Of a DNA stretch of 49,922 nt, positions 11,366-22,258 are shown piece by piece. A program made the position numbers and the translations under genes. Under the pieces are notes generated by a model. That model was not told where the DNA came from. It saw only the letters and a program-made list of their open reading frames with translations, and did no database searches. Source of the DNA: Nostoc sp. T09 (GTDB taxonomy: Bacteria; Cyanobacteriota; Cyanobacteriia; Cyanobacteriales; Nostocaceae). Positions within the stretch are counted from its first letter, which is position 1; each line of letters opens with the position of its first letter. The stretch spans positions 1 to 49,922 of the forward strand of contig NZ_MTAV01000096.1 of assembly GCF_002154695.1 (NCBI RefSeq), read 5' to 3'.

Positions 11366-12952
11366 ATGGATGCTAGGGCACTTTGGCAACGATACCAGAA
11401 TTGGTTATATTTCCACGAGGGATTAGGACTGTACTTAGATGTGAGCCGGATGCGGTTTGATGATACCTTTGTGGAATCGTTGCGGCCGAAGTTTGATAAG
11501 GCGTTTACGGATATGGCAGCACTGGAGAAGGGTGCGATCGCCAATCCGGACGAAAATCGCATGGTTGGACATTACTGGCTGCGAAATCCTGATTTAGCAC
11601 CTACTCCAGAACTTACGCAAGAAATTGTCCAAACCCTAGAACAAATTGAAGCCTTTGCAGAAAAAATTCAAACAGGTGCTATTCATCCTCCCAGAGCTCA
11701 ACGCTTCACTGATATTATCTCCATTGGCATCGGTGGTTCTGCCCTCGGCCCTGAATTTGTCGCTGAAGCCCTCTCCCCTGATTTTCCACCTCTGAAAATT
11801 CACTTTATCGACAATAGCGATCCGGCGGGGATCGATCGCATTCTCACTCACTTGCGAAATAGCCTCGCCAGCACTTTAGTCTTGGTAATTTCTAAATCTG
11901 GAGGAACACCTGAACCACGCAACGGCATGATTGAAGTCAAAAAAGCCTATGCTGGGCAAAATTTGGAATTTGCTCAATATGCCGTAGCTATTACCAGCGT
12001 GGATAGCAACTTAGATAAAGTAGCTAAAGCTGAAGGCTGGCTGGCTAGGTTTCCCATGTATGACTGGGTAGGAGGACGCACCTCAGAAATGTCTACTGTT
12101 GGGCTAGTACCAGCTGCATTGCAAGGCATTGATATTCGCGCCATGCTAGAGGGTGCCAAAGAAATGGATGACGCTACCCGACAAGCTGACATCAAAAATA
12201 ACCCAGCAGCCCTACTTGCCTTATCTTGGTACTTTTCTGGCAATGGCAAAGGTGAAAAAGACATGGTTGTGCTTCCTTACAAGGACAGCTTGCTTTTGTT
12301 CAGTCGCTATTTGCAACAGCTGGTAATGGAATCCTTGGGTAAGGAAAAAGACTTAGATGGTAACACCGTCTATCAAGGGATTGCCGTTTACGGCAACAAA
12401 GGCTCAACGGATCAACATGCTTATGTTCAGCAGTTGCGCGAAGGTGTACCAAATTTCTTTGTTACCTTCATCGAAGTTTTAGAAGATCGTAAAAGTCCAT
12501 CTCCAGAAATCGATCCTGGTGTCACCTCAGGCGATTATCTTTCTGGTTTTCTGCAAGGAACTCGACAAGCGCTTTACGAAAATCAGCGCGATTCAATTAC
12601 AGTCACTATTCCCCAAGTTAATGCTCGTACTGTCGGAGCGTTAATTGCTTTGTATGAGCGTGCTGTTGGTTTGTATGCTAGCTTGGTCAACATCAACGCT
12701 TACCATCAACCAGGGGTAGAAGCTGGTAAAAAAGCCGCCGCGACTATTCTTGACTTACAAAAACGCGTTTTAGAAGTGCTGCAAAACGAAAAATCTGCCT
12801 TTTCTTTAGAAGAAATTGCCGAGAAAGCAGGTGCAGCCGAACAAACTGAGGCAATTTACAAAATTCTGCGTCACTTGCACGCCAATCAACGAGGTGTGGT
12901 GTTGCATGGAAATCTTGGACAACCCAGTAGTTTAAAAGTTTCTGCCGACTGA
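11366..12952 (+). CDS. pgi: Glucose-6-phosphate isomerase
   Basis: Interconverts glucose-6-phosphate and fructose-6-phosphate, linking the Calvin cycle, glycogen turnover and the oxidative pentose phosphate route. The 528 residues are typical of the cyanobacterial form. Visible motifs are the sugar-phosphate-binding SIS segment [51 protein letters not shown], and the catalytic-histidine region [14 protein letters not shown]. It stands alone on its strand with a strong terminator 40 bases downstream. Confidence 0.96.
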
Positions 12953-14165: not shown

Positions 14166-14269
14166 CATGAAAAATTGTGTTCATATCTATATGTCTGGAA
14201 ATATCTTTAAGAATTTGATAGATGTAAAATGAATTCAAAGCAGTAACCAGAATTGAGGTTAAAAGTGTG

Positions 14270-14584
14270 ATGCAATCAACACCAAAACAACCTGCACGTA
14301 GAGGACGAATTTTTCCAGAAAGAACTTTATCACCAGAGGAATTGGCTAGGTGTAAAGCTGAAGATGAAGCATTTGATCGGCGTTGTTGGGCAATTTTTGA
14401 GCGTGTACGTCCCGATTTAATTGAAGAACACTATGGCTGGTATGTTGGTGTGGAGCCTGATAGTGGTGATTACTTCATTGATGCAGATAGAATGCAAGCT
14501 CACAAAAAAGTTCTAGAAAAGTACCCAAATAAGAGACATTTTGTATATTGTCTGAATGAGACGGGAACTACTGGCAGAATATGA
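14270..14584 (+). CDS. Hypothetical protein, first gene of a two-gene unit
   Basis: A 104-residue soluble protein. The N-terminus is basic (QSTPKQPARRGRIFPERTLSPEELA), followed by an alpha/beta part 'DEAFDRRCWAIFERVRPDLI' and YGWYVGVEPDSGDYFIDAD. Proteins of this type are widespread in cyanobacteria beside small aspartyl-protease-like genes, but I know no function. The ATG at 14270 is preceded by GAGG 11 bases upstream; a GTG one codon earlier is possible. Its last codons overlap the next start (ATGA at 14581), so the two are translationally coupled. Confidence 0.75.
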   Translation: MQSTPKQPARRGRIFPERTLSPEELARCKAEDEAFDRRCWAIFERVRPDLIEEHYGWYVGVEPDSGDYFIDADRMQAHKKVLEKYPNKRHFVYCLNETGTTGRI

Positions 14585-14943
14585 TTCAGGGTATTTTTGG
14601 TAGTGAGGGGCAGCTATTTTTTGAAATAGATTTGATTACTAATGATGGGCTAAATCTGCCTGTAGATGCTATGTTAGATACTGGTTTTACAGGCTTTTTA
14701 GCTATTAATAGACAAGATGTAAATGATCTTGATTGGGTTTACAGCGGTGAGGAACTTTTGCGAACTGCGCAGGGAGAAACAAGATTTTTGATTTATTCGG
14801 GTACGCTACTCTTGGATGAACAAGAGTATGAAATTCCTGTTTATGCAGGGAATGAAATTACAGAGGTATTGTTAGGTTCAGAGTGGCTGAAGATTTTGCC
14901 GTTAGTGGTGAATTATCAGGTTGGGATATTGACGCTGGGATAA
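14581..14943 (+). CDS. Single-domain retropepsin-like (clan AA) aspartic protease
   Basis: A 120-residue protein with one pepsin-type half. The motif DAMLDTGFTGFLAI places the catalytic Asp at D33, and the C-terminal VLLGSEWLKILPLVVNY is the second conserved segment (the 'hydrophobic-hydrophobic-G' psi loop). One half-site implies activity as a homodimer. Such genes are common in cyanobacteria and usually follow a small partner, as here. No membrane segment or signal is visible. The target is unknown; the coupled upstream protein is the obvious candidate. Confidence 0.82.
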   Translation: MIQGIFGSEGQLFFEIDLITNDGLNLPVDAMLDTGFTGFLAINRQDVNDLDWVYSGEELLRTAQGETRFLIYSGTLLLDEQEYEIPVYAGNEITEVLLGSEWLKILPLVVNYQVGILTLG

Positions 14944-15002: not shown

Positions 15003-16454
15003 CTAAAGGGGTAAGTCGCGTAGATAGTAAAAGCGATCGCTTTTCCAATCACTTCCTTTTTCTCGCCCTAGATAGCCTGTTAATGGTGAGGAAAGTTCAA
15101 TCAAAATTTCGTGCATTTCTTGTTTTTGTAGTTTCTGTGGTGTATTTGAGCCAAAATACGCACCATGTAAAGTATCCACACCAGCAGAGTCTACACCTGA
15201 GTTTTGCAGATAATTTTTGACAAGCTGGATGATGTGCGATCGCAGACTAATTTCTTTGTAAACTTGGCCAATATATTTATCAACTTCGTCATCAGATTGA
15301 CCAGATTTAAGGTAGTTTTTTAGCTTAAATAAATCTATTGAATTTCGATAGATACTTTGTAACTTGACTAATTTCTCAAGTGTTTCTGGGTTAATAATAG
15401 CCATATCTTGTACTTTTGCTGCATCTTGAAGTTGAGTTGTCGGTTCACCAGGGCCAATAATTAATTTAGTTGCTTGCTTAAATAATTCTTGACTTTTCAG
15501 GCGTAGCGTTCCCAAATTTAGTAGTTGTACAGCAGTATCGTTAGGAATTTTTTTACCAGCTTTACATTCTCCAACTAGTGGATATGGTTGTGAACAGAAT
15601 AAATCTACGCCACCAGCACCACCTCTATGGAAATAATCAACGGTAAAGCCTAAAAACTCAAGGCTCTTGCGAACTATAATTTCAAAATCTGTCCCAGCTT
15701 GATAATTACTTTTTCCCTCATCTTCTTGCTGACTGCGATTACCCAATGCTGCAATTTTATTGATCCAATCTAAATTTGGATCGGGTTGCTTAATAAGTTT
15801 GTTACTACTCCAACCTAAAAATACTTTTATTTCGTCATCTAATTCTTTAGCAGCTGGGTTAGTAATACTAAAGGAGGCTAATGAACTCTGTAATTCTTCC
15901 ACTTCAGGGTGCAGTGGTGGTTCTAATTTTTCTAACTGGCGTTTGCGTTGGGCGAAGATGCGATCGCTTAATACTAATTTTGTATCAAGAATATTCAAAG
16001 AAGGACGTAAAGGCACAAATTGACGATTTTGAGGTTGCACCGAAATCTCAATCGGTTGTAGTAGAGAGACGTGCAGGTAAGCTAAAAAAATATGAGATCG
16101 TTGTCCAAGCTCATACTGTAATGTTTTTTTTGTCCAGACTGTTAACTTCGATAAAGCATCAAAGGAATCAGTGGTGAACATTTTGCATCCTTCACACTTA
16201 GCCCAAGCGCTAATCAAAATTTTTTTAGAGTCTACTTTTGCTAAAGCTGTTTGGGCAGTAGGCAAAAAACTTGGGTGGTAGTATTGCTCTAGGGATTCTA
16301 AATTAATCAATACATTAGTTGGACAGAGAGCAAATTGCCGCCCTGGATTAATAAATCTTCCAGTAATTGCGGCAATGATTCGTCCTTCAGTTAATGCTTC
16401 AATATCGCAAGCTGGTAGGCAAAATGCTGTGTCCAGCACAAGTTTTTCGCTCAT
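15003..16454 (-). CDS. PD-(D/E)XK nuclease-domain protein, third gene of a putative defence operon
   Basis: A 483-residue protein. The central domain looks like a restriction-endonuclease fold: GTDFEIIVRKSLEFLGF (E258), then GGAGGVDLFC (D284), then LVGECKAGKK (E296-x-K298). That is the Asp/Glu-x-Lys metal site of Mrr-type and archaeal Holliday-junction-type nucleases. The N-terminal 150 residues form a separate region with cysteines (FCLPAC, CEGC at 87-90) that I do not recognise. The C-terminal 130 residues are helical. Its ATG lies two bases after the stop of the ATPase gene, so coupling is near certain. It probably cuts DNA when recruited by the ATPase; this is inference. Confidence 0.8.
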   Translation of the reverse strand: MSEKLVLDTAFCLPACDIEALTEGRIIAAITGRFINPGRQFALCPTNVLINLESLEQYYHPSFLPTAQTALAKVDSKKILISAWAKCEGCKMFTTDSFDALSKLTVWTKKTLQYELGQRSHIFLAYLHVSLLQPIEISVQPQNRQFVPLRPSLNILDTKLVLSDRIFAQRKRQLEKLEPPLHPEVEELQSSLASFSITNPAAKELDDEIKVFLGWSSNKLIKQPDPNLDWINKIAALGNRSQQEDEGKSNYQAGTDFEIIVRKSLEFLGFTVDYFHRGGAGGVDLFCSQPYPLVGECKAGKKIPNDTAVQLLNLGTLRLKSQELFKQATKLIIGPGEPTTQLQDAAKVQDMAIINPETLEKLVKLQSIYRNSIDLFKLKNYLKSGQSDDEVDKYIGQVYKEISLRSHIIQLVKNYLQNSGVDSAGVDTLHGAYFGSNTPQKLQKQEMHEILIELSSPLTGYLGREKGSDWKSDRFYYLRDLPL

Positions 16455-16456
16455 GT

Positions 16457-18439
16457 TTAACTCAACAATTCACTCAGATCTTCTGAGTCATCTGTAGTTT
16501 CAACGCTAGAAGGATTGAGGAAGCAGTTTAATAGTTCTTCCCCCTCAATAATCTCTTCATTAATATGACTTGAAGGACTACTCAAAATTTCAAGGAGCAA
16601 AGGATTTTTACGAGTAAACATCCGGGAAAAATCTATAACTTGCTCTTTAGTTAGCTGGTAGTCTTCACATCTATGATAAACAGAATAAAAGTAAACTAGT
16701 TCTGTGACTTCCTCTGATTTTAAATCTACCCACTCACCACCCAAATTATATTTTAGATGTTCTAATAACTTGTATGCTTCTCCTCTTTTATCTATTTTTT
16801 TGTCGTAAGAGCGTACTATACAGCCACGAGTTATATCAAACTTATTGTAGTCAATTAATCGATTGAGTCCCGAAAGTATAGATTTCTTAGGAGGCTGGAG
16901 TACAGCCACTCCAATCTTGATCAAGTTGTCTTTTTCATATGCAATAATTTTAAAATTTATATAGCCATTATTAGGCGGCTTCTCCGAAAATTCTATAACA
17001 TCTTCTATTTTTAATTGTTCTAATTTTTCTCCTGAGGAAGTTTCTCCCTCCAAAATTTCTCCTTTCAATGTTTGGAAACTAAACAATAAAGCACAAGTAA
17101 TTAGGTGATTATCCTCTAGAGAATTTAGAGGGTTTGATTGGCTTTCTTTCTCTAAAGCCAAATAGAATCGCTGCAATGGATCTTCTGGTAGTGAATTTTT
17201 CCCAACAACTTTAAAGTTTTCAGTAAACCATTTCAAAGCTTCCCTTACAGTCAATCCATTTTTACCATATTTTCTTAATTCGCTCTCTTCAAATGGGTAA
17301 AGTAGATTATGAGGTTTTAAATTCCTGAATTCATAAAATTCTTTCAACCAAATAGTAGCTAATTCAACCATAGAATCAGCATTAAGAGTTTTTAAATCTA
17401 TAGGTTTGCGTTGTGTATATTTAGAAACTCTATCTGGCGTACCGCCTGGCATTAAATTTACTTTATCTGTCCATGTATCAGGCAGCATGACTGTAAGAAT
17501 AACAACACCTCGTCCGAGTTCAGACTGTTCCAGAGTATCATGTAGGCGTTTTACTAAATCCGCAATTACTTGTGGAGTTGTTAACCCCTCAGAACTACAG
17601 TTATTTTCTACATCTATTTCATCAAAACAAATTACTATAGGGTTGTAGTAACTCACCAAATTAACAATTTGCTGAACATTTTTAAGTGCTTCAGCTTCTC
17701 TATCCTGATTAGTTTTAGTAGGATTTGGTAATCCTAAAGCCTCAGCATTAGAATTTGCTAACTCATCGCCAGACAACCATTTAATTGCAAAAGATGCTTG
17801 AGTTTCTGAAAGCGTCCATAAAATAGCTCGGATAATGTAGGGATCTGCATTTGGTTTTGTTTTGAGAACTTCTTTGGTTAGCCTATTCATCAAATTCTTG
17901 TTTTTAGCCAACCAAGTTGTGTATACTTTGTCAAATCGTTCAACCAATATTTCAGGAGAAAGGCTAGGAAAGTTAGAATCAATGGCTTTAAATCCTTCGT
18001 TCGCCATTGCTGATGCCACTTCCTGCCATTGCATTACTCCTTGGCTACCAGTATTGCCGAGGCTATCAGTCAAAGTTTGTTGGAATTGGTATTTGACTAG
18101 ATTTAAATCTGTATAATTATTAACGCCTGCATAAACAAACAGAGCACTTCCATTTGCTTTTAGCTGATGGCGAATACGACTGAGTATGTGAGTTTTACCT
18201 ACTCCCTGTTGAGCGGTTATGGCAATTGATGTCACCTTCTCTTGAGTAGATTGGCTATTACGCACAAGCTCAATTGCCTGAAAAACCGCATCGGAAGCGT
18301 GGGAATTCAAAGTTGGCACATCTAGGAATCCTTTTGCCCAGACATCCTGTTCTTTGACTATCCCAGCGTTGATAAATGGATTGTAACTTCTGATGGCGGT
18401 GTCGAGGGACTCTATTGGAGAAACTGGTGAATTGTTCAT
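16457..18439 (-). CDS. P-loop ATPase, second gene of a putative defence operon
   Basis: A 660-residue AAA/STAND-like ATPase. Walker A is AQQGVGKTH (about 76-84) and Walker B is IVICFDEID (about 268-276). A sensor-like strand GVVILTVMLPDTW is near 311-323, followed by an arginine-containing PGGTPDRVSKYTQR segment. The region after it (ADSMVELATIWLKEF) resembles the lid helices of Orc/Cdc6- and BREX-type ATPases. The C-terminal 250 residues contain an alpha/beta section (VIEFSEKPPNNGYINFKIIAYE) and an acidic tail. It may act as a loader, sensor or motor for the nuclease encoded next. I do not recognise it as a named family, so function is inferred from neighbours. Confidence 0.8.
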   Translation of the reverse strand: MNNSPVSPIESLDTAIRSYNPFINAGIVKEQDVWAKGFLDVPTLNSHASDAVFQAIELVRNSQSTQEKVTSIAITAQQGVGKTHILSRIRHQLKANGSALFVYAGVNNYTDLNLVKYQFQQTLTDSLGNTGSQGVMQWQEVASAMANEGFKAIDSNFPSLSPEILVERFDKVYTTWLAKNKNLMNRLTKEVLKTKPNADPYIIRAILWTLSETQASFAIKWLSGDELANSNAEALGLPNPTKTNQDREAEALKNVQQIVNLVSYYNPIVICFDEIDVENNCSSEGLTTPQVIADLVKRLHDTLEQSELGRGVVILTVMLPDTWTDKVNLMPGGTPDRVSKYTQRKPIDLKTLNADSMVELATIWLKEFYEFRNLKPHNLLYPFEESELRKYGKNGLTVREALKWFTENFKVVGKNSLPEDPLQRFYLALEKESQSNPLNSLEDNHLITCALLFSFQTLKGEILEGETSSGEKLEQLKIEDVIEFSEKPPNNGYINFKIIAYEKDNLIKIGVAVLQPPKKSILSGLNRLIDYNKFDITRGCIVRSYDKKIDKRGEAYKLLEHLKYNLGGEWVDLKSEEVTELVYFYSVYHRCEDYQLTKEQVIDFSRMFTRKNPLLLEILSSPSSHINEEIIEGEELLNCFLNPSSVETTDDSEDLSELLS

Positions 18440-18485
18440 AGTGATTTTTTCTAAAATAAAGAACTACACAAAGATTTAGAGAATT

Positions 18486-19151
18486 TTAGGAATCTAAACG
18501 CTTAACGTAGTAACGCAATCCACCGCCAGGAATAGTGATCGAGTCATCACGTTTATCTGGGGTAATATCTCGCATTTCTCCTGCCATCAACTGAAAAATT
18601 TCGCTAGCCTGCATTTCTAGAAGCCATTCGTCGAAATGCTCACGACTAATACAACCCTCTACTTCTCTTCTCATCCTATAAATTGGCACTAAATCGTTGA
18701 GGTTGTAGTTGTGATTCAGCTTGTCGTAGACTTCCAACACCACTGGCTTGAACTCTTCGTAAGATGCGATCGCATCTCTCTGGCTCTTCCCATTAACTAA
18801 TGCAGATGTACTAGCTACCGCAACATCTATCTGCCTAATCCACCGCACCAAGGCATTAGCCGCCCAAGTACCAACAATCGTCCCTTCAAACTTAAAATCT
18901 CTATCTTTCAAACCCTCACCCAGTACCTCTAAACCCTTGGGAGATGCCAAAGAGTACCCCTTTTTGGAGATTGCGATCACTTCCTGTTTCTGCAATTCCT
19001 CAAATACGCTTTGATAATCTGCTACCTTCTTGCCCTTAGATACAATTCTCTTGGTGAGTAGTCCTTTTGTTACTTCTTGCTGCGTTCCTCCCAAATCCCA
19101 CAAAGCCAGAAGCAGACGAGTTTTAGTTAAATTATTCTTTTTTACGTCCAT
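18486..19151 (-). CDS. Winged-helix protein, first gene of a putative defence operon
   Basis: A 221-residue protein. The N-terminal 80 residues look like a winged helix: KTRLLLALWDLGGTQQEVTK, then ADYQSVFEELQKQEVIAISK, and the wing KGYSLASPKGLEVL. The C-terminal part (from GTIVGTWAANALVRWIRQ) is helical, with MRREVEGCISREHFDEWLLEMQASEIFQL at 160-190, and ends in a strand pair (DSITIPGGGLRYYVKRLDS). It may recognise DNA for the complex or regulate the operon. A perfect 10-bp palindrome lies 27 bases before its start. The gap to the ATPase gene is 46 bases. Confidence 0.75.
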   Translation of the reverse strand: MDVKKNNLTKTRLLLALWDLGGTQQEVTKGLLTKRIVSKGKKVADYQSVFEELQKQEVIAISKKGYSLASPKGLEVLGEGLKDRDFKFEGTIVGTWAANALVRWIRQIDVAVASTSALVNGKSQRDAIASYEEFKPVVLEVYDKLNHNYNLNDLVPIYRMRREVEGCISREHFDEWLLEMQASEIFQLMAGEMRDITPDKRDDSITIPGGGLRYYVKRLDS

Positions 19152-19177
19152 TCTATGTAGCCTATTTAACTTACTTT

Positions 19178-19187
19178 TATCATGATA
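19178..19187 (-). promoter_or_regulatory. Palindrome upstream of the three-gene operon
   Basis: TATCATGATA, a perfect 10-bp palindrome, ends 27 bases before the first start codon of the operon. A similar ATGATAATTAT string occurs near 19242. It could be an operator for the winged-helix protein. Short palindromes like this also arise by chance in AT-rich DNA. Confidence 0.3.
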
Positions 19188-19650: not shown

Positions 19651-20142
19651 ATGAACACAACATACGGAGAGCGTAAAATAGTTTCGCGTCTGCTGGCAAT
19701 TTGTCTGTCAGCATTGCTAATAGTACCCGTGCTGACTAGCTGCGGAGGTTCCCGCACTGCTAATGTACCACCACCAGTTGATGATAGTTCTGGTAGAACA
19801 GTGAGCGATCGCAACACCACAAACCAACCCCAAGCTAAGAAAGGATTGGGTACTGGGCAGAAAGTAGCAATTTTGGCAGGAGCCGCAGCACTTTACTATC
19901 TCTACAACCAGCATAAGAATGCTTCACAAGAAGGGGCCCAAGGCAAGTACTACCTTTCTAAAAACGGGCGTGTATACTACCGCGATGCTCAACACCGCGC
20001 TCATTGGGTAACTCCACCATCAGAAGGAATTCGAGTACCTGAATCCGAAGCGCAAAGATACCGCGACTACCAAGGCTTTAACGGGCGCGCTACAGGTCGA
20101 GATTTAAGTGGCATAACTGCAACTGAAGCTCCAGCACTTTAA
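19651..20142 (+). CDS. Putative lipoprotein, cyanobacterial hypothetical
   Basis: A 163-residue protein with a lipoprotein signal: basic start, hydrophobic RLLAICLSALLIVPV and lipobox LTSC (Cys at about 31). A proline/serine-rich linker follows, then a short hydrophobic glycine/alanine segment (GTGQKVAILAGAAALYYLYNQ, about 68-88), which could be a second membrane-associated helix. The C-terminal part KYYLSKNGRVYYRDAQHRAHWVTPPSEGIRVPESEAQRYRDY is probably periplasmic and aromatic-rich. I recognise the type from cyanobacterial genomes but know no function. The repeat-protein gene follows 93 bases downstream on the same strand. Confidence 0.78.
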   Translation: MNTTYGERKIVSRLLAICLSALLIVPVLTSCGGSRTANVPPPVDDSSGRTVSDRNTTNQPQAKKGLGTGQKVAILAGAAALYYLYNQHKNASQEGAQGKYYLSKNGRVYYRDAQHRAHWVTPPSEGIRVPESEAQRYRDYQGFNGRATGRDLSGITATEAPAL

Positions 20143-20235: not shown

Positions 20236-20610
20236 ATGGTAGATGATTTTTTCCGCAAGGCGAAGGATTTGTTCTTAGGAAGGAACGACAATCAAGCTGA
20301 AGAAGAGGATTACCGCGATCGCCAGGTACGTCCAGCCAGCGAAGATCCATACGGTGACCCAGCCGACCAGAACTTTTATGGTAACGTTACCCCCGCTAGC
20401 CAAGACCCTTATGGCGACCCAGCAGACTTTTACGGGAACGCCATCCCCGCCAGTCAAGACCCCTACGGTGACCCAGCCGACTTTTACGGTAACGCCATCC
20501 CCGCCAGCCAAGATCCCTACGGCGACCCAGCCGACCAAGGATATGGCGATGTTCGCCCAGCTAGCGAAGATCCCTACGGCGATCCAGCCGATGAGGAATA
20601 CCGCCGCTAA
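20236..20610 (+). CDS. Acidic tandem-repeat protein (PASxDPYGDPAD repeats)
   Basis: A 124-residue protein. Residues 1-28 (MVDDFFRKAKDLFLGRND and an acidic stretch) form a probable amphipathic helix. Residues 30-120 are five near-identical units of 18-20 residues built on PASxDPYGDPAD followed by an aromatic-glycine link (FYGN or GYGD). The repeats are also near-identical at DNA level, so copy number could change by slippage. There is no signal or membrane segment. The composition (Asp, Pro, Gly, Tyr) suggests an unstructured or calcium-binding chain; that is a guess. It lies just behind the lipoprotein gene. Confidence 0.75.
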   Translation: MVDDFFRKAKDLFLGRNDNQAEEEDYRDRQVRPASEDPYGDPADQNFYGNVTPASQDPYGDPADFYGNAIPASQDPYGDPADFYGNAIPASQDPYGDPADQGYGDVRPASEDPYGDPADEEYRR

Positions 20611-21277: not shown

Positions 21278-22258
21278 TTAAACATTGACAGCAGATAACA
21301 TTTCCTGTGCTCGGTCAATATTTTGACGTACCGATTTAGCAGAACTATGTAAAGCAGCTCTTTCTTCATCGGCGATATTTAATTCCAATACACTCTCAAT
21401 TCCACCGCAACTCAACCGACACGGAACGCCGATTACGATATCCTTTAAACCGTATTCACCTTCAAGATAAGCTGCAACAGGCAACAAGCGCGATTGATTG
21501 AGCAAAATTGATTCTACCATCACACTCACAGCAGAAGCGGGAGCAAAAAAAGCACTACCTGTATGCATCAATTCCACAATTTCTGCGCCACCATTCCGGG
21601 TTCTCTCTACTAAACGCTCAATAGTGGCTGCATCTAACAATTCTGTAATCGGAATGCCGTTGACATGAGCATAACGAGGCAAGGGAACCATCAAATCGCC
21701 GTGACTACCCAGTACCATAGCTTTAACATCGGCGGGCAAAACCCCTAATTCTAAAGCAATGAAGGTTTCAAAGCGGGCTGAGTCTAAGACGCCAGCCATA
21801 CCCATAACGCGATCGCGCGGTAACCCGGTTGCTTGCCAAGCTAAATAAGTCATCACATCCAAGGGATTGGTGACGACGATAAAAATAGCATTAGGAGAGT
21901 AGGCGATCGCATTTTTGGCTGCTTCCACCACAATCTTGGCATTGGTTTTGAGTAAATCGTCTCGAGTCATACCTGGTTTGCGGGGAATCCCTGCGGTAAT
22001 CACCACGATTTCTGAACCAGATGTATCAACATAGTCGTTAGTGCCAATAATCTGACGATTATGTGCTTCAATTCCCCTAGCCTCCATCAAATCTAGTGCT
22101 AATCCTTGAGGCATTCCTTGAACGATATCTAATAACACTACATCTGCTAGGTTTTTCTCAGCAATTCGTTGAGCTAGGGTACTACCAACTCTACCTGCAC
22201 CAATAACAGTGACACGGGGTAAATGACACAAAGCCGGAGATTGAGGATAAGAAGACAT
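21278..22258 (-). CDS. mdh: Malate dehydrogenase
   Basis: NAD-dependent malate/oxaloacetate interconversion in the cytosol. The 326 residues follow the LDH-like MalDH pattern. The Rossmann motif is VTVIGAGRVGSTLA (about 16-29). The substrate-specificity loop GIPRKPGMTRDDLL has the arginine typical of malate rather than lactate enzymes. The catalytic aspartate region is about 173-176, and the catalytic histidine is in VLGSHGDLMVPL. The 13-residue N-terminal tail before the Rossmann strand is slightly long. It stands alone, convergent to the MITE-like element. Confidence 0.93.
   Translation of the reverse strand: MSSYPQSPALCHLPRVTVIGAGRVGSTLAQRIAEKNLADVVLLDIVQGMPQGLALDLMEARGIEAHNRQIIGTNDYVDTSGSEIVVITAGIPRKPGMTRDDLLKTNAKIVVEAAKNAIAYSPNAIFIVVTNPLDVMTYLAWQATGLPRDRVMGMAGVLDSARFETFIALELGVLPADVKAMVLGSHGDLMVPLPRYAHVNGIPITELLDAATIERLVERTRNGGAEIVELMHTGSAFFAPASAVSVMVESILLNQSRLLPVAAYLEGEYGLKDIVIGVPCRLSCGGIESVLELNIADEERAALHSSAKSVRQNIDRAQEMLSAVNV

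What the first reader, a model, noticed from the sequence alone, without database searches (positions are those of the whole stretch)
15003..19187. Candidate undescribed three-gene defence operon: winged helix, P-loop ATPase, PD-(D/E)XK nuclease
Seen: three minus-strand genes with gaps of 46 and 2 bases. Gene 1 (221 residues) has a winged-helix N-terminus. Gene 2 (660) has Walker A AQQGVGKTH and Walker B IVICFDEID. Gene 3 (483) has E258, D284 and E296-x-K298 in the order of a restriction-like nuclease core. Known: an NTPase plus a nuclease is the core of many anti-phage modules (McrBC, Septu, Lamassu, BREX-like), but I cannot match this protein set to any of them. Inference: the ATPase senses or loads on DNA, the nuclease acts, and the winged-helix protein targets or regulates. 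The block is AT-rich and sits among accessory genes.
Basis: partly seen in the sequence, partly recalled or inferred. Interest (0 to 1): 0.78.

Follow-up and report, generated by a model that had tools for sequence, protein, structure and literature searches.

The report
Cyanobacterial restriction operon, mimicked by phages
Three neighbouring cyanobacterial genes look like a DNA-cutting anti-virus system that specialists have already predicted in one clause; what seems new is that its parts are swapped between strains at one chromosome site, and that cyanobacterial viruses carry doubled copies of the piece that appears to plug into its motor protein.

Summary
In detail: three minus-strand genes (15003-16454, 16457-18439, 18486-19151) with the stated motifs. 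Gene 3 is an ASCH-like (DUF1802) domain plus Mrr-type PD-(D/E)XK nuclease; gene 2 an Orc/Cdc6-like AAA+ ATPase; gene 1 probably winged-helix. In 58 genomes (own plus 57 relatives) 34 carry all three side by side.

It is not undescribed: Rakesh et al. 2024 (PMC10853773) predict this gene set in one clause, untested. Nor is it in an accessory island: in many Nostocales it sits in a fixed slot between mdh and pgi. In four relatives lacking it the slot holds an OLD-like, an SNF2/PLD-like or a Schlafen-TPR plus reverse-transcriptase cassette, or is empty; this supports defence.

New here: (1) ATPase alleles about 40% identical replace each other at this slot, and of gene 1 only residues about 187-214 switch with them. 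(2) Cyanophage PaV-LD and seven viral contigs each encode a protein with two tandem copies of the gene-1 C-terminal domain, without ATPase or nuclease hits; in PaV-LD and one contig (with a near-identical second) a neighbouring ADP-ribosyltransferase-like protein shares the N-terminus. I propose virion-delivered decoys of the ATPase's adaptor; untested.

The parts
18486..19151 (-). Gene 1, 221 aa, probable winged-helix DNA-binding/adaptor protein
   Evidence: weak wH matches among relatives; family alignment A2
18510..18587 (-). Gene 1 residues 189-214: segment whose residues follow the ATPase lineage (probable wing of a C-terminal wH; not modelled)
   Evidence: per-residue association 1.0 at 192, 196, 197, 201, 214; 1 label change on the tree of residues 183-221 against 13 and 15 for 1-125 and 1-180; DNA alignment ends at codon ~187 in L044 v L066 and L064
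16457..18439 (-). Gene 2, 660 aa, Orc/Cdc6-like AAA+ ATPase
   Evidence: Pfam KAP_NTPase 1.7e-6; AF2 model pLDDT 83.1, pTM 0.61; Foldseek best hits ORC-Cdc6 7jgr_G 9.2e-5 and archaeal Cdc6 1fnn_A 1.4e-4, BrxC 9zdx_C 1.7e-3
18188..18214 (-). Walker A AQQGVGKTH (residues 76-84)
17612..17638 (-). Walker B IVICFDEID (residues 268-276)
16724..17056 (-). Gene 2 C-terminal alpha/beta region, residues 462-572 (candidate inactive REase-like domain; invariant K508)
   Evidence: strand/helix order in the model, K508 in 33 of 33; fold not separately tested
15003..16454 (-). Gene 3, 483 aa, ASCH-like domain + Mrr-type PD-(D/E)XK nuclease + C-terminal wH-like region
15936..16427 (-). DUF1802 (residues 10-173), ASCH-like fold
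   Evidence: Pfam 1.9e-25, 36 of 36 relatives; Foldseek ZmASCH 5y6b_A E 8.8e-4, prob 1.00, TM 0.60 by target
15456..15707 (-). Nuclease core (residues 250-333) with E258, D284, E296-C-K298
   Evidence: Mrr_cat (E up to 0.1) in 25 of 36 relatives, not in the window protein itself; conservation; helix-strand-strand-helix-strand order in the model
15006..15293 (-). Gene 3 C-terminal region (residues 388-483), perhaps wH-like
   Evidence: model elements; Foldseek matches to Cdt1 C-terminal and ORC domains at E 0.1-0.3 only
21278..22258 (-). mdh, one flank of the fixed slot
19651..20142 (+). lipoprotein-like gene (cluster c13), slot flank
14267..14943 (+). small gene c8 and retropepsin-like gene c12 (name by eye), other flank
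11366..12952 (+). pgi, outer flank of the slot

Best explanation
The operon encodes a three-subunit DNA restriction complex of the predicted Orc/Cdc6-ASCH-REase kind. An Orc/Cdc6-like AAA+ ATPase probably forms a ring on DNA; gene 1 is its DNA-binding adaptor, joined to the ATPase through its last ~30-40 residues (probable wing); gene 3 reads DNA state with its ASCH-like domain and cuts with its Mrr-type PD-(D/E)XK domain. It defends cyanobacteria against phage and other invading DNA. Different ATPase, adaptor-wing and nuclease-core alleles are exchanged at a fixed chromosomal slot. Cyanophages answer with proteins carrying two tandem copies of the adaptor's C-terminal domain, at least some of which look virion-delivered, and these probably occupy the adaptor site on the ATPase. 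Shown: gene set, domains by family or fold match, co-occurrence, slot, mosaic exchange, wing-ATPase linkage, phage copies. Inferred: ring formation, DNA loading, modification sensing, cutting, defence, injection, inhibition.
For: Domains. Conserved order: 42 of 47 scanned loci match all three proteins; 60 complete gene 1-ATPase-nuclease sets collected, 57 with distinct ATPases. Co-occurrence: 34 of 58 genomes carry all three side by side (compared by eye); of 292 phylum genomes 41 carry all three and 47 carry any at the thresholds used (by eye). Slot replacement: four relatives. Mosaic: the ATPase lineage label needs 1 change on the gene 1 183-221 tree, 13 on 1-125, 17 and 18 on the nuclease core and C-terminus (shuffled means about 17). 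DNA: L044 v L066 is 93% identical up to gene 1 codon ~187, has no alignment across the ATPase, and is 94-97% identical beyond the operon. Phage copies; all 16 scored rows (14 distinct copies) score higher with operon gene-1 profiles than with the paralogue profile. No ATPase or nuclease hit beside any copy or in 50,697 phage records. Shared N-terminus with an ADP-ribosyltransferase-like neighbour: 95% over 195 aa in L104, 58% over 142 aa in PaV-LD.
Against: No activity, binding or phage-challenge data exist. Matches of the ATPase to Cdc6/ORC are by fold only, with low TM-score (0.28 by query). Co-occurrence is not perfect: of 292 genomes G113 has an ATPase without the other two, G173 gene 1 without the other two, G176 an ATPase with part of gene 1 and no nuclease; L072 has the ATPase alone. 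The wing-ATPase linkage could be physical hitchhiking, since the wing lies within ~160 bases of the ATPase start; the weaker linkage over the nuclease's first ~260 residues shows that proximity does act. A stable slot with vertical signal (gene 1 1-125 identity correlates 0.85 with flanking proteins) is less typical of a mobile defence island. Plasmids gave one distant ATPase and nothing for genes 1 and 3. Two of the 14 distinct phage copies are very divergent (best 33 and 51 bits). ADP-ribosyltransferase matches are weak: three are below Pfam's cut-off, one (PaV-LD ORF079, 24.2 against 22.3 bits) above it. Three of the eight viral proteins (L103, L105, L106) show no such link to head genes in the stretch read. 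Whether hosts of these phages carry the operon was not tested.
Confidence: 0.6

Rival explanations
1. The operon is a chromosomal DNA-repair or replication-control module (Orc/Cdc6-like loader with a structure-specific nuclease), not a defence system.
For: Fixed location between housekeeping genes in many Nostocales; gene 1 residues 1-125 and nuclease residues 1-240 follow the flanking genes' divergence (correlations 0.85 and 0.75); no plasmid copies of genes 1 and 3.
Against: Patchy: 34 of 58 and 41 of 292 genomes have all three; broken remnants at the slot in G002 and G004 and replacement by other defence-like cassettes; allele replacement at ~40% identity; viral copies of its adaptor domain.
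Confidence: 0.15
2. The phage tandem domains are plain DNA-binding winged helices recruited for virion or DNA-organising roles (three are fused to a Dps/ferritin-like domain) and have nothing to do with the host ATPase.
For: Dps/ferritin-like fusion in L098/L105 (Pfam 7.2e-12), with 93-97% identical N-termini over ~290-323 residues in L103 and L106; PHROG 'minor head protein' match of the N-terminal part of PaV-LD ORF078 (6.1e-32); wH domains often bind DNA (general knowledge).
Against: Most copies keep the wing segment that in hosts tracks the ATPase lineage, L102 copy 1 resembling lineage B and the others A by whole-domain profile; all copies resemble this operon's gene 1 more than the paralogue's (the paralogue profile has only 7 sequences).
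Confidence: 0.4
3. The gene-1 wing follows the ATPase lineage only because the two stretches lie next to each other and are exchanged together by homologous recombination with breakpoints in the conserved part of gene 1.
For: The segment is within ~160 bases of the ATPase start; nuclease windows show partial linkage near the ATPase (6-14 changes over residues 1-280) and none further on (16-19 from residue 261); the break lies in strongly conserved sequence.
Against: Linkage is perfect in both gene-1 end windows (1 change) while the nuclease start, nearer to the ATPase end, already shows 6; the lineages differ at fixed or nearly fixed positions there.
Confidence: 0.4

Closest known systems
Orc/Cdc6 + (ASCH-REase) + DndG-like triple-wHTH operon predicted by Rakesh, Aravind and Krishnan 2024 (PMC10853773; section 22 read whole)
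   Same: Same three-component set: Orc/Cdc6-like ATPase, REase fused to ASCH, wHTH protein, in an operon
   Different: The paper gives one clause in section 22 and calls the neighbourhoods mobile; here the operon has a fixed slot in many Nostocales, mosaic alleles and viral copies of the adaptor domain, none of which section 22 mentions (its supplement was not seen)
HerA/FtsK-Orc/Cdc6 capture systems with 3'-5' exonuclease (same section)
   Same: A second family found here has a gene-1-like protein, a related ATPase and, in L140, an exonuclease/PDDEXK/FtsK protein
   Different: Different effector; no ASCH-REase; ATPases 22-30% identical to the window's
McrBC and other modification-dependent (Type IV) systems
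   Same: AAA+ NTPase with a PD-(D/E)XK nuclease and a modified-base reader (recalled for McrBC)
BREX BrxC (with BrxB and PglZ)
   Same: BrxC is among the next best fold matches of the ATPase (1.7e-3)
   Different: No PglZ-, PglX- or BrxL-type match among the three proteins
T4 Alt and MuF-type virion-delivered effectors (passages of PMC5512222)
   Same: In PaV-LD and L104 the phage protein shares an N-terminus with a neighbouring ADP-ribosyltransferase-like protein
   Different: Payload is two copies of a host adaptor domain, not an enzyme; packaging not shown

Membership tests
Orc/Cdc6-ASCH-REase-wHTH operon (PMC10853773) | Orc/Cdc6-clade AAA+ ATPase | tested here: met
   Foldseek top hits 7jgr_G 9.2e-5 and 1fnn_A 1.4e-4, modest TM-scores; Walker motifs conserved; no tree of the clade was made
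Orc/Cdc6-ASCH-REase-wHTH operon (PMC10853773) | REase fused to ASCH | tested here: met
   Mrr_cat in 25 of 36 relatives; ASCH fold match prob 1.00, E 8.8e-4
Orc/Cdc6-ASCH-REase-wHTH operon (PMC10853773) | DndG-like triple wHTH protein | tested here: inconclusive
Orc/Cdc6-ASCH-REase-wHTH operon (PMC10853773) | inactive REase between AAA+ and C-terminal wHTH of the ATPase (stated there for the HerA/FtsK-linked versions) | tested here: inconclusive
   alpha/beta region at 462-572 in the model; no separate fold search
Orc/Cdc6-ASCH-REase-wHTH operon (PMC10853773) | mobile gene neighbourhood | tested here: inconclusive
   fixed slot in many Nostocales, but cassette replacement and other locations elsewhere
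Named PADLOC defence systems (2023) | system models match | tested here: not met
   genes 1 and 3 no match; ATPase only PDC-S20, best 8.2e-4 over 46 residues; 6 of 33 aligned ATPases match that model at E up to 0.01, none better than 8.2e-4
McrBC | McrB/McrC family matches | tested here: not met
   none in Pfam, NCBIfam or PADLOC scans
BREX | BrxC with PglZ and PglX partners | tested here: not met
   no such family among the three proteins; other neighbours were not scanned for it
DndFGH / Ssp | Dpt/Ssp protein models | tested here: not met
   no Dpt or Ssp match for the window's three proteins; the paralogue's third protein (L140) matches SspH over its FtsK part
Virion-delivered phage effectors (Alt/MuF-like), for the viral two-domain proteins | packaged in the head and injected | not testable with these tools
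   only gene position and shared N-termini

The most novel reading that the evidence does not exclude
Cyanophages carry, as payload of proteins that in at least two cases look virion-delivered, two tandem copies of the adaptor domain of a cyanobacterial restriction complex, resembling alternative allelic types of the host adaptor. They block the AAA+ ATPase by occupying its adaptor site, and host alleles at one chromosomal slot are exchanged in response: an adaptor-mimic counter-defence with allele-specific matching.
Probability: 0.4. Interest if true: 0.83.

Novelty: new member of a known kind. Interest (0 to 1): 0.62.

Why it matters
It turns a one-clause prediction into a system with a defined locus, allelic modules and a concrete interface to test. 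If the viral two-domain proteins are inhibitors, they give an independent, virus-side argument that the operon is antiviral, a ready tool to switch it off, and an example of phages mimicking a defence subunit rather than DNA. It also identifies a chromosomal slot of Nostocales where defence-like cassettes replace each other.

Tried and rejected
'Undescribed system': rejected after PMC10853773. 'Accessory island': rejected, near neighbours are largely housekeeping genes. Named PADLOC systems, McrBC, BREX, Dnd/Ssp: no model match for the three proteins. Plasmid origin: only one distant ATPase hit on a plasmid. Phage-encoded copies of the whole system: none found for the nuclease or ATPase; the IMG/VR scans use short peptide patterns and would miss divergent copies. 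Sequence search in the PDB gave nothing for the ATPase and only a chance-level hit (E 0.92) for the nuclease; gene 1 was not searched there. A first automatic split of ATPase lineages by average linkage put 56 of 57 rows in one group and was discarded; the split used (36/21) comes from the ATPase tree itself (quick tree without bootstrap), so the label test is exploratory. Four ATPases at the edge of lineage A (L059, L012, L024, L018) have wing sequences partly like B. In the C-domain tree the phage copies do not group with a host lineage except L102 copy 1, on a long branch, so their origin is unresolved. Papers: PMC10853773 outline with abstract, passages and section 22 whole; PMC12839542, PMC5512222 and PMC10343443 passages only; others seen only in search listings. 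I found no mention of the phage proteins or the wing linkage in searches and in those passages; they cover open-licence PMC papers only, and I read no hit beyond those four papers. McrBC make-up and the meaning of wH wings are recalled.
Full report
OBSERVATION. E258, D284, E296 and K298 are each kept in 35 of 36 aligned nucleases, the exception being one degenerate tandem copy; Walker G79, G81 and K82 are kept in 33 of 33 ATPases. The winged helix of gene 1 rests on weak family matches in some relatives.

WHAT THE PROTEINS ARE. Gene 3 starts with DUF1802 (1.9e-25), present in 36 of 36 aligned proteins; 25 of 36 also match Mrr_cat at E up to 0.1 (best 5.5e-5), the window protein not among them. 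Its AlphaFold2 model (pLDDT 85.5) matches ASCH domains best (ZmASCH 5y6b_A, E 8.8e-4, prob 1.00; TRIP4 ASCH bound to DNA lower down). ASCH is of the PUA superfamily, some members of which read modified bases (established knowledge; listings). Gene 2's model (pLDDT 83.1) matches Cdc6/ORC best, then a mitoribosomal protein, BrxC of BREX and, further down, RdrA; only two hits pass E 0.001 and TM-scores are low (0.28 by query), so this is a clade-level hint. Its 462-572 region is an alpha/beta domain that may be the inactive REase domain described for such ATPases; not tested separately.

CONSERVATION. A scan of GTDB contigs with the ATPase returned 47 loci, all titled as cyanobacteria; 42 match all three proteins, though the search patterns came from the window's ATPase and favour its relatives. 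From 77 loci 60 complete sets were collected; spacing, counted with the stop codon (window 50 and 6), is 38-87 in 57 of 60 and -12 to 33 in 59 of 60. In 58 genomes (own plus 57 relatives) I compared three searches by eye: gene 1 near full length in 36, ATPase (E<1e-60) in 35, nuclease near full length in 34, all three side by side in 34; a few of these matches contain one stop. Exceptions: G018 has gene 1 with a truncated ATPase; G049 has gene 1 with a nuclease in pieces elsewhere; G002 and G004 have remnants. In 292 phylum genomes: gene 1 45 (E<=1e-30), nuclease 43 (E<=1e-30), ATPase 43 (E<=1e-40), all three 41, any 47 (by eye; adjacency not checked one by one). G113 has an ATPase alone, G173 gene 1 alone, G176 an ATPase with part of gene 1, G196 and G198 gene 1 and nuclease on separate contigs without the ATPase, G323 a truncated gene 1. 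Separate ~200-residue DUF1802 proteins occur in 21 of the 58 genomes (by eye). Plasmids: none for genes 1 and 3, one distant ATPase.

THE SLOT. Between psaE-fpg-mdh and c12/c8-pgi-livM the operon has the same place in many Nostocales: fpg and pgi clusters each appear in 19 of 48 records (47 loci plus window; several are cut by contig ends). Of 27 genomes with both a strong ATPase and an mdh match, 14 have them within ~10 kb, by eye; the others lie on different contigs or elsewhere. In four relatives lacking the operon I could identify the slot: G002 holds a 1082-aa SNF2/PLD-like protein plus a nuclease remnant; G004 a 617-aa OLD/GajA-like protein plus a gene 1 remnant (c13 on one side, c12/c8 missing on the other); G016 a Schlafen AlbA_2-TPR protein plus a reverse transcriptase (c13 missing); G008 is empty between c13 and c12 (about 300 bases) but has a NACHT protein between c13 and mdh. 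For eight others (G013, G014, G015, G023, G026, G037, G047, G050) only the stretch beyond mdh was fetched and it is unrelated (in G050 fpg and psaE lie there); G020, G039, G040, G041 and G046 were not fetched. Replacement by defence-like cassettes supports a defence role, on few cases.

MOSAIC ALLELES. The ATPase tree splits 36/21 (SH-aLRT 100, quick tree). This label needs 1 change on the tree of gene 1 residues 183-221, 13 on 1-125, 15 on 1-180, 5 on nuclease 1-240, 17 on 241-375 and 18 on 376-483. In 40-residue windows gene 1 gives 12-16 up to residue 180 and 1 in the two windows beyond (161-200, 181-220); the ATPase 1-4; the nuclease 6-14 up to residue 280 and 16-19 beyond; shuffled means are about 17. 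Residues 192, 196, 197, 201 and 214 separate the lineages completely. In Nostoc loci L044 and L066 the flanks are 93-97% identical in DNA, alignment stops at gene 1 codon ~187, is absent over the ATPase, returns at 74-80% in the nuclease and is 94-97% beyond. Among 17 syntenic loci (136 pairs) identity of gene 1 1-125 correlates 0.85 with flanking proteins, nuclease 1-240 0.75, ATPase 0.14, nuclease core 0.13. So ATPase and nuclease-core alleles are exchanged in place, and the end of gene 1 travels with the ATPase. A functional interface is my reading; hitchhiking is a serious rival.

VIRAL COPIES. Gene 1 profiles found relatives in IMG/VR: seven distinct contigs, two of them (L099/L104 and L100) nearly identical and three (L103, L105, L106) closely related. 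The cultured cyanophage PaV-LD, the only genome hit among 50,697 phage records (as two records), has one in ORF078. All eight proteins carry two copies each at the threshold used. Partner domains differ: Dps/ferritin-like (Pfam match shown for L098 = L105; L103 and L106 have near-identical N-termini), a Cys-motif N-terminus (L100/L104, L102, PaV-LD), and an unassigned one in L107. Head genes lie near the L102 and L104 copies, capsid and virion genes near the PaV-LD copy, a tape-measure gene before the L107 copy; around L103 and L106 two of the three neighbours scanned were helicase- or primase-like and one had no match. In L104 a 195-residue N-terminal stretch is 95% identical to that of the next protein, which has a weak ADP-ribosyltransferase match and a PHROG 'minor head' match; in PaV-LD 142 residues are 58% identical to ORF079, which has ART-type matches. 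L102 shares 162 residues at 30% with a neighbour of unknown function; L103 and L105 share only 33-45 residues with another protein of their contig; L106 and L107 none. Of 16 scored rows (14 distinct) all score higher with operon profiles than with the paralogue profile; lineage A scores higher than B in 13 of 14 distinct (one nearly tied: 50.8 v 50.1) and L102 copy 1 scores higher with B. These are whole-domain profiles built after seeing the groups, from 36, 21 and 7 sequences. ATPase and nuclease gave no hit beside the copies, in IMG/VR or in the phage records.

HOW IT PROBABLY WORKS. Inference from family knowledge: an ATPase ring with gene 1 scans or loads on DNA; the ASCH part of gene 3 senses DNA state; the nuclease cuts. 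Viral proteins with two adaptor domains would occupy ATPase sites early in infection. They might instead be DNA-binding virion parts.

KNOWN OR NEW. The gene set is predicted in PMC10853773 (section 22), untested there. The second family found here (gene-1-like protein, related ATPase and a large third protein in L140-L144; L140 scanned; L139 and L145 lack the third gene beside them) fits the FtsK/exonuclease systems of the same section. I found no report of the slot, the wing linkage or the viral copies in the searches listed under Tried and rejected, which cover open-licence papers only.

Noticed in passing
L140:5218-10655 (also L139, L141-L145): Paralogous family: gene-1-like protein (~280 aa) and related ATPase, with a large third protein in L140-L144; in L140 it combines 3'-5' exonuclease, PDDEXK_1 and FtsK domains.
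   Followed up: partly
L138:10409-12181 (PaV-LD ORF079), L138:15783-16862 (ORF085): Phage proteins sharing a Cys-rich N-terminal motif with ORF078; ORF079 has ADP-ribosyltransferase-type matches, and ORF085 is annotated minor virion protein.
   Followed up: partly
L068:11437-12879: Tandem second nuclease copy that differs at all four catalytic positions (A, E, K, Q for E258, D284, E296, K298) while keeping the rest of the protein.
   Followed up: no
L046:3753-16085, L054:220-11374, L011, L015: Arrays with two or more operon copies or spare ATPases next to the operon, perhaps allele reserves.
   Followed up: no
L154:1272-3583: Schlafen AlbA_2-TPR protein followed by a reverse transcriptase in the slot; possible defence pair.
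   Followed up: no
window 20236-20610: Small protein made of tandem PASQDPYGDPAD-type repeats, found at the slot's edge in several loci (cluster c17).
   Followed up: no
window 14267-14943: Small gene c8 and retropepsin-like gene c12 beside the operon in many loci, sometimes in two or three tandem copies (L040, L052), also present where the operon is absent (L147, L150, L154).
   Followed up: no
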